64,000 nucleotides of DNA from contig NZ_FNWJ01000002.1 of assembly GCF_900108055.1 (NCBI RefSeq), forward strand, positions 692,382-756,381. Reading direction: 5' to 3'. The notes beneath the pieces are model-generated. The model saw only the letters and a program-made list of their open reading frames with translations, was not told the DNA's origin and did no database searches. Positions 39,009-50,282 of the stretch are shown here, piece by piece. Numbering within the stretch: position 1 is the stretch's first letter; each line of letters begins with the position of its first letter. Origin of the DNA: Thermoleophilum album (GTDB lineage: Bacteria > Actinomycetota > Thermoleophilia > Solirubrobacterales > Thermoleophilaceae). A program made the translations under genes and the position numbers.

Positions 39009-39656
39009 TCAGGCAGGCGTTTGTTGGTCGCTTACCGACGAGCAGGTCGGCCAGGGCCGCCCACCCTCCAGCCGCCAGAGCCGCAAGGCGATGAGGTCTT
39101 GGATCCACTCGGCGGCGCGCGCCGGGTCTCCCCAACCACCCAGTCGACGCCAGGTTTCGAGGGTGAATTGGTACTTGCCTCGGTAGGCCCCGCCGCCTCC
39201 GATCGCAGCCGGGTTGCCGCCGGACTCGCAGTCCGCAATGCGCTCGAGCTCCGGCGGGATCCGGGGCACGGGCCGCCGCACGCTGGCCGCGCGGGCCGGC
39301 ATGTCGACCCGCAACTTGCGGGCCGTCAGATAGTCGACGAGGCCGGTCGCAGGGAGTCCCGCGCGGCGCTGGAAGCGTCGCACGGCGGCACGCGTCGCGG
39401 TGTCGTAGAGACCGTCGCGGAACGGTGTGCGCAACCGTACTTGCAGCGCCCGCACGGCGTCGCCGTAGCTGCCGAGGGATAGCAGCGGTGCGCCTACCGG
39501 CGGCGCGCCAGCACCGCCTCCCGCCCCGGCCGCAACTGGTTCGGCCGCGAGGCCGACGGCGACGGCCTGGAAAGCAACGACGAGCACCGCTAAGAGCCGT
39601 CGCCGGATACGTCGACGGCTCGCAAGCGCGCAGGTGTGGCGGCTCCGTTGTTCCAT
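39009..39656 (-). CDS. Secreted Rpf-like muralytic protein with peptidoglycan-binding domain
   Basis: A 215-aa exported protein. The N terminus is basic followed by a hydrophobic stretch (LLAVLVVAFQAVAVGLAA), a signal peptide. Residues ~58-115 form a PG_binding_1 domain (LSLGSYGDAVRALQVRLR, LYDTATRAAVRRFQRRAGLPATGLVDYLT). Residues ~133-208 are a resuscitation-promoting-factor/lysozyme-like domain: IADCESGGNPAAIGGGGAYRGKYQFTLETWRRLGGWGDP, with the catalytic Glu in CESGGNP. It should cleave peptidoglycan glycan strands during growth or germination. It lies 86 nt before the M20 gene on the same strand. Confidence 0.85.
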   Translation of the reverse strand: MEQRSRHTCALASRRRIRRRLLAVLVVAFQAVAVGLAAEPVAAGAGGGAGAPPVGAPLLSLGSYGDAVRALQVRLRTPFRDGLYDTATRAAVRRFQRRAGLPATGLVDYLTARKLRVDMPARAASVRRPVPRIPPELERIADCESGGNPAAIGGGGAYRGKYQFTLETWRRLGGWGDPARAAEWIQDLIALRLWRLEGGRPWPTCSSVSDQQTPA

Positions 39657-39819
39657 CTCGTCGTGCGCCTACGGGGTGAGCTGACGGGCTCGCGCTGTGC
39701 GCTACGCCGCGATCGCGGCGATTCGCCCCTGGGTGGCCGGGCCACCCGGTGGTTCCCCCGCTCCCCGCCGCCTGAGCGACGAGGACTCGGCGTGAGGGGC
39801 GTATCTAAGCAGAAGGCGC

Positions 39820-45829: not shown

Positions 45830-46294
45830 ATGGGAGACACCGCACGGAGAGGCAACTACGAATCCGGCTCCGACTACGTGCTCGAGTACGGGGAGCTGCG
45901 CTTCACGTTCAACGAACGGGACTTCGTCGAGCGTGTCGAACAAGCCGCGATCAAGCTCGGCTTCGTCGACGGTCCGCTGGGCGCGGCCGAACGCGAGGAC
46001 CTGGTGGAGTTGGCGGTCAACGGCGAGGTCAGTGCCCCCCGCTCGGAACTCGGCGAGCACATCAACGAACGCTGGGACGAGATCTGCGGTCAGCCCGACC
46101 ACTCCCTGGTTCACTGGCTGAGGCGACTGGTCTTTCGCGGCGCCTGGTTGGACCAGCGCGTGCTCGAAGGGGAGCTCGACGTCGTCTTCGACGAGCGCAC
46201 GCTGACCTTCGCTTACGCCCAGCCGGACCGCGGCGGTGCGCTCGTGGAGCTCGCTCCCGAACCCTCTTGGCGGAGCGTCGCATACCGGCGCTGA
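45830..46294 (+). CDS. Unknown acidic protein
   Basis: A 154-aa soluble acidic protein from ATG 45830 that I do not recognise. It has a consistent coding pattern and begins YVLEYGELRFTFNERDFVERVEQAAIKLGFVDGPL; charged and aromatic residues are evenly spread, with no membrane helix, signal or metal motif. It is isolated: the two-component operon diverges on its left and the Rho-like gene converges on its right, 94 nt away. Confidence 0.6.
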   Translation: MGDTARRGNYESGSDYVLEYGELRFTFNERDFVERVEQAAIKLGFVDGPLGAAEREDLVELAVNGEVSAPRSELGEHINERWDEICGQPDHSLVHWLRRLVFRGAWLDQRVLEGELDVVFDERTLTFAYAQPDRGGALVELAPEPSWRSVAYRR

Positions 46295-46388: not shown

Positions 46389-47645
46389 TCAGGTCAAGAG
46401 GTCGGCGCGCAGCGTCCCCGAGCGTTCGAACAAGACGTGCAGCTCCCCGTCTGGTGCGTGCGGTGGCCGCGGACCGAGCGTTACCCGCGCCGTCGCCATC
46501 GACACGAGCTCGGAGCGCTCATCGCAGGCTGCGAACACGGTCACCGTGGCGGCGCCGGCAACGCGCCGGCCGGCTGCGAACGCACGCCGACGAGCGACGG
46601 TCGGCAGGCGATCGGCGTCGTCGAGCAGAAGCACTGCGTCGCGACCGCGCTCGGCGTGGCGTTTACAGAACTCGACCGCCCAGTCGACCGCTTGCGCCAC
46701 CGCCTCGCCCGACTCGTCGAACGAACCGCCGAAAACGCGCACCCCCTCGATCGCTCGCCACTCCCCGAGCTCTTCGGGACGCACCCCGACCAGCCCAGCG
46801 ACCACCACCGGCGCCGTCGCGTCCGACTCGAGGCCGACCAGCGGCACCGCCGCCGGCGGCGACACGAGCGCCTGCGCCACCCGCCTGAGCAGCGAGCTAC
46901 GCCCGGTCCAGGGCGGACCGGCGACAGCGACACGTGAGCCGCGTCCGACCGGTACGCGGTCGAAGGGGCTCGGTAGATCGAGACGCTCGATCGGATAGAG
47001 GACCTCGAGCTCGTCGAAGCGCGGGCGCTCCAGCGGCGGTTCGGGCGGGCCCCCAGCGACCGACTCCACGCGCACCAGCGACGGGTGTCGCTCGCCGCGC
47101 CGCGGCGGTCGGGCACGCCCGCGCACCTCATCACCCGGACGTAGCCCGCAGCGGCGGATCTGCGCCGGCGAGACGTACACGTCGCGCCGCGAGGGACCGG
47201 CCGGATCGACGCGGATGAAGCCGCTGCCGTTGGCGAGCAGGTCGAGCACACCCGCGACCACCGTCTCCCCCTCGCCGCGCCCGCTGCGTCGCTCGACAGG
47301 CTCACGGGCCGCGCCCTTCTCCGCCTCTCGCGCTTCGTCGCCGGCTGCGGCCTCCTGGGCCACAAGCTCCTCGCTGCCAGCCAGGGGCACGGCATCTTCC
47401 GGACGCGCGCCGAAGGCGACCGACCGCTTTTCGGCCACCGCGGGTGGCGCCCCGGTCGCCACCTCCGAGGCGCTCTCGACCGGCGCCGGCGCGGGCTCCG
47501 AGGCCTCCCCGGCGCGCTCCAGTATCGCCTCGATCAGTGTCTCGCGGCGGAGCGTCCGATAGCCCTCGATGCCGAGCTCCGCGGCTAGCGCGTGAAGGTC
47601 CGCGAGGGGGCTTTCATACAAGTCTTCGCGTCGGATTACGGTCAT
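46389..47645 (-). CDS. Degenerate Rho-like protein
   Basis: A 418-aa protein from ATG 47645 with the domain order of transcription terminator Rho. It has a Rho_N/LEM-like helical domain (~1-45), an acidic Ala/Glu-rich linker (~46-125), a cold-shock-like RNA-binding domain (~128-195: VLDLLANGSGFIRVDP, RDVYVSPAQIRRCGLRPGDEVRGRARPP), and a shortened ATPase (~207-418) with the Rho motif YPIERLDLP. Walker A reads GPPWTGRS (243-250), with Arg for the essential Lys. After the Walker B-like AVLLLDD (337-343) the Q-loop and R-loop stretches typical of Rho are absent, though the SGTLRADLL end remains. ATP-driven translocation is unlikely. It ends the PAP2-lipoprotein-glpD-folP operon. Confidence 0.75.
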   Translation of the reverse strand: MTVIRREDLYESPLADLHALAAELGIEGYRTLRRETLIEAILERAGEASEPAPAPVESASEVATGAPPAVAEKRSVAFGARPEDAVPLAGSEELVAQEAAAGDEAREAEKGAAREPVERRSGRGEGETVVAGVLDLLANGSGFIRVDPAGPSRRDVYVSPAQIRRCGLRPGDEVRGRARPPRRGERHPSLVRVESVAGGPPEPPLERPRFDELEVLYPIERLDLPSPFDRVPVGRGSRVAVAGPPWTGRSSLLRRVAQALVSPPAAVPLVGLESDATAPVVVAGLVGVRPEELGEWRAIEGVRVFGGSFDESGEAVAQAVDWAVEFCKRHAERGRDAVLLLDDADRLPTVARRRAFAAGRRVAGAATVTVFAACDERSELVSMATARVTLGPRPPHAPDGELHVLFERSGTLRADLLT

Positions 47646-47670: not shown

Positions 47671-48630
47671 CTAACGGCGGCCACTCGGTGGCCGGCCGGG
47701 CAGGCTATCGCTTGCCACCGTCTCCGGGGGCGCCTGGCGTCTGAGCTCCTCCGCGAGCACGAGGTCGGGCGCAACCGCGGCGGCGCCCGACAATGCCGCG
47801 CGCACGGCGAGGAAGTCGCGCACCTGCGCGACATCGTGCACACGCACAAGCTGTGCGCCGGCGTCGGCAGCGCGCGCGACCGCAGCCAAGGTACCGCCCA
47901 GCCGATCAGCCGGCGGACGCCCACAGATCGCCCCGATGAAGTCCTTGCGCGAGCACGCCACCAGCAAGGCGCAGCCGAGCGCGTGGAGCCGTTCGAGCTG
48001 GCGAAGGATGCGTACCGACTGGTAAGGCGTCTTGGCGACGTCGATACCGGGGTCGAGCAGCAGACGGTCGGGCGCGATTCCGGCAGCGGTCGCCCGGTCG
48101 CGGAGCTCGGCCAGCAGACCGATGACGTCGGGTAGCACGTCGGCGCCGTCGCCCCGCGGTCCGGCGCTCTTGGGTGCGGCGCGCGTGTGGCATAGCACTA
48201 GCGACGCCCCTGTCTGCGCACACAGCTCCAGCAGGCGCGGGTCGCACAGCGCGGTCATGTCGTTGACCAGGCGGGCGCCCGCCTCGAGCGCTGCGCGCGC
48301 AACCGGTGAACGCCAAGTGTCGATGGAGACCAGCACGCCCTCTTCGGCTAAGCGCCGGATCACCGGCACGACGCGCTCGATTTCGACCTCTACGGGCACG
48401 GGCGGTCGATCGGTGCGTCCCGATTCGCCTCCCACATCGACGATCGCAGCGCCCTGCTCGACCAGACTCACGCCCCGCCGCACTAGTTCGTCGAGACTGC
48501 GCCGTCCAGGATCGGAAAAGGAATCCGGCCCCGCGTTGAGGATGCCCATCAAGAGGGGCTGGCCCGGCGGGGCGGTGAGCAGAGTGTCCCCCACCCGAAA
48601 CTCGGCCTGCCGCGTCGCGCTCGTAGTCAT
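47671..48630 (-). CDS. folP: Dihydropteroate synthase (divergent)
   Basis: Pterin-binding TIM-barrel enzyme of folate synthesis, 319 aa from ATG 48630, overlapping the glpD stop (ATGA). The usual blocks are present but altered: MGILNAGPDSFSDPG (family VTPDSFSD), DVGGESGRTD (family GGESTRP), SIDTWRSPVARAALEAGARLVNDM, LLLDPGIDVAKTPYQS, VACSRKDFIG and RVHDVAQVRDFL. Loss of Thr in two substrate loops is notable. It may be the true folate enzyme of this lineage or a FolP2-like paralogue; a second folP elsewhere would decide. Confidence 0.8.
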   Translation of the reverse strand: MTTSATRQAEFRVGDTLLTAPPGQPLLMGILNAGPDSFSDPGRRSLDELVRRGVSLVEQGAAIVDVGGESGRTDRPPVPVEVEIERVVPVIRRLAEEGVLVSIDTWRSPVARAALEAGARLVNDMTALCDPRLLELCAQTGASLVLCHTRAAPKSAGPRGDGADVLPDVIGLLAELRDRATAAGIAPDRLLLDPGIDVAKTPYQSVRILRQLERLHALGCALLVACSRKDFIGAICGRPPADRLGGTLAAVARAADAGAQLVRVHDVAQVRDFLAVRAALSGAAAVAPDLVLAEELRRQAPPETVASDSLPGRPPSGRR

Positions 48631-50282
48631 CCGCCGACCCGCTCTTCGCTCGGCACGAGGCCCTCGGCCCGATAGTTCGCGGCCCACTCGGCCCGGGCCG
48701 CCTCGCGCTCCGTCGCCCGCCAGCCGAGCTCGCGCGCCATCGCCTCGACGATCGGCTCGAGCCGCTCCGCGCGCCCCGGCTCGAGCGCACGCGGCGCCAG
48801 CAGGCCGAGGCGTGTGCGCCGCAGCAGCACGTCGGCGAGCGACCGCGCCTGCTCGTGGCGAGCGGCGAACGCGACTTCGGCGAGCAAGTCGGGCATCCCG
48901 GGGACGACAGGCGCCGTTAGCTCCGGCCGCTCGGCCGCCAGACCGAGCACCTCGTGCGCAGTGTGCCCGTAGCGCGCCGCGAGATGGCGGATGCTCGCTT
49001 CGTCGACACCCGGGACGCGCGGCAGACGTTCCGGATCGACCGGCAGGCCAAGCGGAATCTCCTCGGTCCGGCACGGCGCTCGCCGCCCCTCGCGTTCCAC
49101 CAGTCGGTCGACCACTTGCTGCGCCATGCGCCGCCAGGTCGTGAGCTTTCCGCCGGTGATCGTCACCACTCCGGACGGCGTCTCGAACAGCTCGGCGCGC
49201 CGCGAGATGTCGACCGACTTGCGCTCGTCGCCGGTGCCGACTAGTGGACGCACCCCGGCGTAGGCACCCTCGACGTCGGCCACCGTAAGGTCGGTCTCGA
49301 AGAACTCGTTGACTGCTTCGAGCAGGTAAGCCACGTCCTCGCTTGCTGGCGGCACGTGTTCAAGCGGACCCTGGTAGTCGTGATCGGTCGTGCCAACCAG
49401 CGTCCGTCCGAGCCACGGCAGAACGAAGATCGAGCGCCCGTCCTTGGCCGGCACGATCGCCCCGGCCCGCACTGGCAGGCGCTCCTGGGCGATCAACAGG
49501 TGGGAACCCCGGCTCGGTCGGATGCGCGGTGCCTCGCTGAGCTCGCGCAACTCGTCGGCCGGTAGGCGGTCCGCCCACACACCGGTCGCGTTGACGACGT
49601 GCCGGGCGCGCACCCGAAAGCGCGCATCGCGCTCGCGGTCGCGTACTTCGGCCCCGACCGCGCGACCGCCCTCGCGCGCCACCGCCACCGCTTCTAGCCG
49701 GTTCGCGCAAACCGCGCCGTAGCGCTCTGCCTCGGCGAGGATCGTGAGCACCAAACGGGCGTCATCGGTCTGGCAGTCGTAGAAGAGGTAACCGCCAGTG
49801 GGGTGGCGTCGGCTGAGCGCCGGCAGCAGCTCGCTGACCTCATCACCGGCGATCAAGCGGTGACGCTGGGGGCTCCACTCCTCGGCCTCGCCGCGGCGAC
49901 CGCGGCGCCAGGCCATCGCGTCGTACATGTTGAGCCCGAGACCGACCAGTCGATCGGGACGCTTCCCGTCGAAAGCAGCCACCACGAGCGGCAAAGGCCG
50001 CACCAGGTGCGGTGCAAGCTTGACCATCAGGGAACGCTCGAGCAGCGCCTCGCGCACCAGCCCGAGGTCGAACTGCTGCAAGTAGCGCAGGCCACCGTGC
50101 ACGAGCTTGGAGGACCGGCTCGAGGTCCCGGCGGCGTAGTCCTCGCGCTCCACGAGCGCCACGCTGAAGCCGCGCGAGGCTGCGTCGAGCGCAACGCCGG
50201 CGCCAGTGACACCACCGCCGACGACGACGACGTCGAACTCCTCCTCGGCGAGGTCGACGAGCGCGCGATCCCGATCGATCAC
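48627..50282 (-). CDS. glpD: Glycerol-3-phosphate dehydrogenase, FAD-dependent
   Basis: Membrane-associated flavoprotein oxidising glycerol-3-P to DHAP, 551 aa from GTG 50282. The FAD Rossmann motif is VVVVGGGVTGAGVALDAASRG; TSSRSSKLVHGGLRYLQQFDLGLVREAL, HVVNATGVWAD and GTTDHDYQGP are GlpD signatures, and the C-terminal domain shows YGHTAHEV and RRTRLGLL. No glpF or glpK lies nearby; it sits with a PAP2 phosphatase and lipoprotein, suggesting turnover of glycerolipid-derived glycerol-P. Confidence 0.94.
   Translation of the reverse strand: MIDRDRALVDLAEEEFDVVVVGGGVTGAGVALDAASRGFSVALVEREDYAAGTSSRSSKLVHGGLRYLQQFDLGLVREALLERSLMVKLAPHLVRPLPLVVAAFDGKRPDRLVGLGLNMYDAMAWRRGRRGEAEEWSPQRHRLIAGDEVSELLPALSRRHPTGGYLFYDCQTDDARLVLTILAEAERYGAVCANRLEAVAVAREGGRAVGAEVRDRERDARFRVRARHVVNATGVWADRLPADELRELSEAPRIRPSRGSHLLIAQERLPVRAGAIVPAKDGRSIFVLPWLGRTLVGTTDHDYQGPLEHVPPASEDVAYLLEAVNEFFETDLTVADVEGAYAGVRPLVGTGDERKSVDISRRAELFETPSGVVTITGGKLTTWRRMAQQVVDRLVEREGRRAPCRTEEIPLGLPVDPERLPRVPGVDEASIRHLAARYGHTAHEVLGLAAERPELTAPVVPGMPDLLAEVAFAARHEQARSLADVLLRRTRLGLLAPRALEPGRAERLEPIVEAMARELGWRATEREAARAEWAANYRAEGLVPSEERVGG

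What the first reader, a model, noticed from the sequence alone, without database searches (positions are those of the whole stretch)
46389..47645. Rho-like protein that has lost its motor residues
Rho_N, a cold-shock RNA-binding domain and a Rho-type ATPase outline are all recognisable, but Walker A is GPPWTGRS (Arg for Lys) and the Q/R-loop region that grips RNA is missing. A catalytically dead Rho could be an RNA-binding regulator, a dominant partner of true Rho hexamers, or a former Rho with a new job in the PAP2-glpD-folP operon.
Basis: partly seen in the sequence, partly recalled or inferred. Interest (0 to 1): 0.7.

Follow-up and report, generated by a model that had tools for sequence, protein, structure and literature searches.

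The report
Motor-dead Rho, its order's only Rho
Rho normally pulls itself along RNA to stop transcription, but this soil-bacterium lineage (an order of Thermoleophilia) has no working Rho: its one remaining rho gene has lost every part of the engine while keeping, under selection, the parts that hold RNA, so Rho seems to have been turned from a motor into a static RNA-binding protein.

Summary
Window 46389-47645 (-) encodes a 418-aa Rho relative with Rho_N, an OB-fold RNA-binding domain and a RecA-like domain. Walker A Lys is Arg, the catalytic Glu is Val, the Arg finger is Leu, and the Q-loop, R-loop and C-terminal helices are gone. No canonical rho exists in the genome, in the single-contig genome of its congener, or in any sampled genome of its order (Solirubrobacterales by named carriers, about 100 genomes). 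It is not a paralogue. It is the original rho gene: it forms one clade with the other damaged Rhos of the order and sits at the ancestral rho locus behind the same upstream genes. The Q-loop is deleted in all 88 damaged sequences examined. Walker A and the catalytic Glu decayed differently by family. Selection is purifying in all three domains, so this is no pseudogene. Related lineages shed further modules: one group lost the OB fold and carries an Arg-rich box, one species lost the ATPase domain, and some Rho-less sister families keep only a Rho_N-like stub fused to an enoyl-CoA hydratase. Best reading: a motor-less RNA-binding pseudo-Rho. RNA binding and any role at RNA polymerase are inferred, not shown. 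The 'dominant partner of true Rho' idea is rejected.

The parts
46389..47645 (-). CDS of the motor-dead Rho orthologue (418 aa plus stop, ATG at 47645)
47505..47624 (-). Rho_N domain (residues 8-47)
   Evidence: Pfam PF07498 1e-9; model pLDDT about 97
47265..47504 (-). disordered, fast-evolving linker (residues 48-127)
   Evidence: pLDDT under 50 through most of it; dN/dS 0.56 against congener
47040..47258 (-). OB-fold RNA-binding domain (residues 130-202); most primary-site positions kept (GSGFIR, DVYVSPAQIRRC, GERHPSL)
   Evidence: Pfam PF07497 7e-23; alignments
46392..47021 (-). RecA-like pseudo-ATPase domain (residues 209-418), ends where E. coli Rho residue 372 would be
46896..46919 (-). 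degenerate Walker A, GPPWTGRS (Lys to Arg)
46782..46784 (-). Val288 at the catalytic-Glu position (E. coli E211); context GVRPEE
46620..46622 (-). Walker B Asp342, kept (LLLDD)
46592..46604 (-). junction left by the Q-loop deletion (RLP/TVARR)
   Evidence: deletion shared by 88/88 relatives
46410..46412 (-). Leu412 at the Arg-finger position (E. coli R366); context SGTLRADLL
47671..48633 (-). upstream neighbour folP (Pterin_bind), part of the conserved locus
48627..50282 (-). upstream neighbour glpD (DAO family), part of the conserved locus
45830..46294 (+). convergent neighbour conserved at this locus across the order; no Pfam match

Best explanation
This is the order's original and only Rho, rebuilt as a motor-less RNA-binding protein. 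Shown by sequence, synteny and tree: it is orthologous to canonical rho; it lacks the residues needed to hydrolyse ATP and the two loops that move RNA; no second Rho is present; all three domains are under purifying selection. Inferred: Rho_N, the OB fold and, in relatives, basic linkers or tails hold RNA passively, while the RecA-like domain serves as a folded scaffold for self-association or for contact with a partner such as NusG or RNA polymerase. It would act as a static RNA-bound regulator or chaperone, not as a translocase that chases RNA polymerase.
For: No canonical rho: all other hits in the own genome are FliI, AtpA and AtpD, and no genome of the order has one, including the single-contig congener G103. 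In 88 damaged Rhos the Q-loop is deleted in all, and the canonical R-loop Lys and Arg finger are gone in all that could be read there; in the window's family the Walker A Lys and catalytic Glu are also gone. One clade, 49/49, SH-aLRT 99.8 / UFB 100. Ancestral locus. dN/dS in OB 0.02-0.29 and pseudo-ATPase 0.03-0.34 (canonical control at most 0.09). Confident three-domain model. Relatives that lost the OB fold carry an Arg-rich box under selection (dN/dS 0.08-0.18) and the one that lost the ATPase kept the OB, so nucleic-acid binding looks like the common denominator. Experimental analogue: M. tuberculosis Rho E386A loses ATPase, helicase and termination but keeps nanomolar RNA binding and oligomerisation (PMC4499133); the Arg-rich actinobacterial N-terminal subdomain binds RNA alone (PMC4167861).
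Against: No biochemistry: RNA binding is inferred from retained residues, and one primary-site Phe is Ser in the window's family. Family f4 has lost most OB signature residues yet keeps the gene, so RNA may not be the ligand everywhere. At least two well-assembled genomes of the order (G202, G228) seem to lack the gene, so it is not indispensable. dN/dS is several-fold above that of canonical Rho.
Confidence: 0.66

Rival explanations
1. It still terminates transcription, but without a motor: it binds nascent RNA and RNA polymerase and inactivates the polymerase allosterically.
For: It keeps the RNA-binding half and a folded RecA-like domain. ATP-uncoupled release had been proposed for M. tuberculosis Rho (discussed in PMC4499133).
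Against: The same paper shows that termination by M. tuberculosis Rho is inhibited by E386A. The channel loops and C-terminal helices are gone. Sister families live without any Rho.
Confidence: 0.15
2. A slowly decaying relic: the order gave up Rho termination and the gene is only partly useful on its way to loss.
For: Stepwise loss of different parts in different families, OB-less and ATPase-less forms, apparent absence in some genomes, and complete loss in sister families. dN/dS is raised relative to canonical Rho.
Against: Intact reading frames in nearly all genomes of an old, diverse order; OB and pseudo-ATPase dN/dS well below 1 in every pair tested; all three domains still fold confidently in the model.
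Confidence: 0.14
3. An ATP-responsive (binding, not hydrolysing) RNA-binding switch.
For: In family f3 the Walker A Lys is kept in 50 of 56 and the Walker B Asp in 55 of 56 sequences.
Against: The window's own family mostly has Ala, Arg or Val for the Walker A Lys and f4 has no P-loop, so at best it applies to f3.
Confidence: 0.05

Closest known systems
Canonical transcription termination factor Rho (TIGR00767; E. coli 1pv4/3ice, M. tuberculosis 7oqh)
   Same: Domain order Rho_N - OB - RecA, ancestral gene locus, most primary RNA-site residues, Walker B Asp, overall fold (Z 30.6)
   Different: No functional Walker A, catalytic Glu, Arg finger, Q-loop, R-loop or C-terminal helices; scores 146 bits against a 509 cut-off
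Laboratory ATPase-dead Rho mutants (M. tuberculosis E386A, E. coli E211A; PMC4499133)
   Same: The same catalytic Glu is lost; shows that RNA binding and oligomers survive motor death
   Different: Single engineered change beside an otherwise intact motor; here the loss is natural, multiple, and fixed across an order
Rho with disordered N-terminal insertions (mycobacterial Rho PMC4167861; B. thetaiotaomicron phase-separating Rho PMC10284900)
   Same: Disordered, often Arg/Asp/Gly-rich stretch before the OB fold in many relatives
   Different: Those Rhos keep an active motor; the window's own linker is Ala/Glu-rich rather than Arg-rich
NCBIfam NF041509 'Rho short form' paralogue
   Same: Named as a second kind of Rho
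   Different: Score 109 bits against a cut-off of 628; here the gene is the orthologue and the only Rho

Membership tests
Transcription termination factor Rho (TIGR00767) | Profile score above the curated cut-off (509 bits) | tested here: not met
   146.5 bits, coverage to 287/415
Transcription termination factor Rho (TIGR00767) | Rho_N + OB RNA-binding + RecA-like domain order | tested here: met
Transcription termination factor Rho (TIGR00767) | Common descent with rho (tree and locus) | tested here: met
   Ancestral locus shared with canonical rho; tree of Rho sequences, though its exact attachment point is confounded by the long stem
Transcription termination factor Rho (TIGR00767) | Walker A Lys | tested here: not met
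   Arg in GPPWTGRS
Transcription termination factor Rho (TIGR00767) | Catalytic Glu (E. coli E211) | tested here: not met
   Val288; no member of f1, f3 or f4 keeps it
Transcription termination factor Rho (TIGR00767) | Arg finger (E. coli R366) | tested here: not met
   Leu412
Transcription termination factor Rho (TIGR00767) | Q-loop and R-loop of the secondary RNA site | tested here: not met
   Q-loop deleted in 88/88; FKGTGN motif absent
Transcription termination factor Rho (TIGR00767) | Walker B Asp | tested here: met
   Asp342
Transcription termination factor Rho (TIGR00767) | Primary RNA-binding site residues of the OB fold | tested here: met
   F143, R145, D155, Y157, E185 kept; the first aromatic of GFGF is Ser
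Transcription termination factor Rho (TIGR00767) | Hexameric ring, RNA-stimulated ATPase, termination activity | not testable with these tools
   needs purified protein
NF041509 paralog_Rho2 | Profile score above the cut-off (628 bits) | tested here: not met
   109 bits
FliI / F1-ATPase | Better match than to Rho | tested here: not met
   F1 Z about 23 against Rho Z 30.6; FliI 12 bits against rho 146

The most novel reading that the evidence does not exclude
A whole bacterial order controls transcription with a pseudo-Rho: a static RNA-binding protein docked at RNA polymerase or NusG that regulates (stops, pauses or protects) transcripts without ATP or translocation, and the same motor loss has happened independently in other Actinomycetota families.
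Probability: 0.3. Interest if true: 0.88.

Novelty: new variant of a known kind. Interest (0 to 1): 0.72.

Why it matters
Rho is widely treated as an indispensable motor of large GC-rich genomes. Here a diverse order keeps the RNA-binding body of Rho under selection after discarding the engine, and sister families discarded Rho altogether. That separates what the Rho body does from what the motor does, and makes it testable whether Rho has a motor-independent role. It is also a practical caution: genomes that look as if they encode rho cannot be assumed to have Rho-dependent termination.

Tried and rejected
Second canonical rho in the genome: searched with PF00006 and TIGR00767; hits are FliI, AtpA, AtpD only. 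Assembly gap: rejected because the single-contig congener and the rest of the order agree. Paralogue: rejected by locus and tree. Sequence artefact or pseudogene: rejected by relatives and dN/dS. FliI or F1 relative: rejected. Function from neighbours: not informative, as the neighbourhood is inherited from the canonical rho locus; the convergent neighbour has no Pfam match. My early count that 11 of 28 f2 genomes lack the gene (notebook) was wrong: with the family profile most of these carry an OB-less form. The Foldseek superposition gave high rmsd, probably because the domains are joined by mobile linkers; VIA resolved it. No paper describing this was found in the held library in nine searches; subscription papers, including the 2013 phyletic survey of Rho (PubMed 23704790), could not be read, so prior mention cannot be excluded.

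Full report
OBSERVATION. Window 46389-47645, minus strand, encodes a 418-aa protein. Pfam finds Rho_N at residues 8-47 and Rho_RNA_bind at 130-202; the NCBIfam rho equivalog scores 146 bits against a cut-off of 509, with coverage ending at profile position 287 of 415. PDB Rho chains match at E 1.4e-33. The motor residues were read from alignments with canonical Rhos of the same class and phylum. Walker A is GPPWTGRS instead of PPKAGKT. The catalytic-Glu motif DERPEE is GVRPEE. The Q-loop segment is deleted. The R-loop FKGTGN is absent. The Arg-finger motif SGTRKEELL is SGTLRADLL. The chain stops where E. coli Rho residue 372 would be. The Walker B Asp and most OB-fold RNA-site residues are kept. 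E. coli residue numbers are from general knowledge of Rho; the roles of the catalytic Glu, Arg valve, Arg finger and Q/R-loops are stated in PMC8828861.

NO OTHER RHO. In the window's own genome (2.2 Mb, 5 contigs, 95.6% complete) the only other hits to the rho and ATP-synt_ab models are FliI, AtpA and AtpD. Of 299 genomes of the class, 45 have a Rho above the cut-off, all in families labelled f6, f8, f9 and f12. None of the roughly 100 genomes of the window's order (f1-f4) has one, including the congener G103, which is a single contig. A profile of the damaged family (alignment A1) finds a rho-derived gene in nearly all of 131 order genomes. The tool's tally of 130 of 131 includes weak FliI/ATP-synthase matches; for example G202 and G228 have no true hit. 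Named carriers from the genome collection are Solirubrobacter phytolaccae and Solirubrobacterales MAGs, so the order is Solirubrobacterales or its GTDB equivalent in the Thermoleophilia.

ORTHOLOGUE, NOT PARALOGUE. In sister families with canonical rho the gene order is metallophosphoesterase - cyclic-DPG synthetase - 2-phosphoglycerate kinase - (transaldolase) - rho. These enzyme names are my reading of the sequences; Pfam gave only generic matches for the kinase and none for the synthetase. The damaged rho stands behind the same genes in members of f1 and f4, and directly behind the transaldolase gene in members of f2 and f3. Variants that lost whole domains sit at the same locus, between glpD/transaldolase and the same convergent gene. 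In the tree all 49 damaged sequences form one clade (SH-aLRT 99.8, UFB 100) with a long stem; f2 and f3 are each monophyletic. The clade's exact attachment among canonical Rhos is unreliable because of the long branch.

ORDER OF LOSS. Among 88 damaged sequences the Q-loop is deleted in 88 of 88, and the canonical R-loop Lys and Arg finger are gone in all that can be read there. The Walker A Lys is still Lys in 50 of 56 of f3, Arg in 14 of 15 readable f2 sequences, Ala, Arg, Val or other in f1, and absent in f4. The catalytic Glu survives in 14 of 15 f2 sequences and in none of f1, f3 or f4. The simplest history is that the RNA-gripping loops went first and the ATPase site then decayed along different routes. 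Two genera of f2 (g35, g36; loci L178-L190) later lost the OB fold and the P-loop, and now consist of Rho_N, an Arg-rich linker with a conserved box (RPRRRRRRRRFGRR) and a shortened RecA core. That core is predicted with pLDDT near 90 and still matches Rho best (Z 15.3). One f2 species (G178, L194) did the reverse and keeps only Rho_N and the OB fold.

SELECTION. In close pairs dN/dS is 0.02-0.29 for the OB fold and 0.03-0.34 for the pseudo-ATPase, and 0.07-0.86 for the linker. In the OB-less genera it is 0.18-0.28 for the pseudo-ATPase and 0.08-0.18 for the Arg box. Canonical Rho of sister families gives at most 0.09. Selection is thus relaxed but clearly purifying, also on the domain that cannot work as an ATPase. 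These are simple Nei-Gojobori estimates, and dS above 1 is uncertain.

STRUCTURE. The AlphaFold2 model has mean pLDDT 85, with Rho_N, OB and RecA domains mostly above 90 and a disordered linker. It aligns with E. coli Rho 1pv4_B at Z 30.6, 2.1 A over 272 residues; F1-ATPase follows at Z about 23.

MECHANISM. Direct experiment on a relative shows what losing the catalytic Glu does: M. tuberculosis Rho E386A loses ATPase, helicase and termination but keeps nanomolar RNA binding and its oligomeric state (PMC4499133). The actinobacterial N-terminal subdomain binds RNA without the OB motifs (PMC4167861). Together with the retained OB site, and with the presence of an Arg box where the OB was lost, the best-supported account is a motor-less RNA-binding pseudo-Rho. 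Orthology, motor death and purifying selection are shown here. RNA binding, oligomerisation and any contact with RNA polymerase or NusG are inferred. An ATP-independent terminator (0.15), a slow relic (0.14) and, for f3 only, an ATP-binding switch (0.05) remain possible.

KNOWN OR NEW. By the membership test it is Rho by descent and fold, but it fails the features that define a working Rho. Nine library searches found no description; the 2013 survey of Rho distribution (PubMed 23704790) was not readable. I rate it a new variant of a known kind. Beyond the order, several other Actinomycetota genomes without canonical Rho carry differently damaged Rhos, which suggests that motor loss has recurred.

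Noticed in passing
L276:5741-6598, L277:2678-3514, L278:6369-7466, L279:5925-6776 (families f11, f10): In Rho-less families of the same class the gene in the ancestral rho slot (after 2-PG kinase) is an enoyl-CoA hydratase carrying a Rho_N-like N-terminus; Rho_N is marginal in Pfam (23.5 bits against 24.9) in one and below threshold in another.
   Followed up: partly
L178-L190 (f2 genera g35, g36): Rho derivatives without OB fold or P-loop but with an Arg-rich box and a mini RecA core.
   Followed up: yes
L194:1705-2211 (G178): Rho reduced to Rho_N plus OB fold, 169 aa; ATPase domain gone.
   Followed up: partly
L288-L294 (G494, G398, G447, G538, G534, G524, G335): Other Actinomycetota families whose only Rho has damaged motor motifs to varying degree (P-loop, Q-loop, R-loop or Arg finger); G494 is a complete genome. 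Looks like independent motor decay.
   Followed up: partly
L077, L197 (Solirubrobacter phytolaccae and relative): Damaged Rho with a long Lys/Ala/Pro-rich, histone-H1-like C-terminal tail.
   Followed up: no
window 45830-46294 (+): 154-aa protein without Pfam match, convergent with the rho gene across the whole order.
   Followed up: partly
class-wide: Families f5, f7, f10 and f11 have no Rho hit beyond FliI/ATP-synthase-level scores, and two near-complete f9 genomes (G012, G030) also lack it; f7 keeps the upstream genes of the rho locus.
   Followed up: partly
window 39650-39802 (-): c-di-AMP (ydaO) riboswitch, 53 bits.
   Followed up: no
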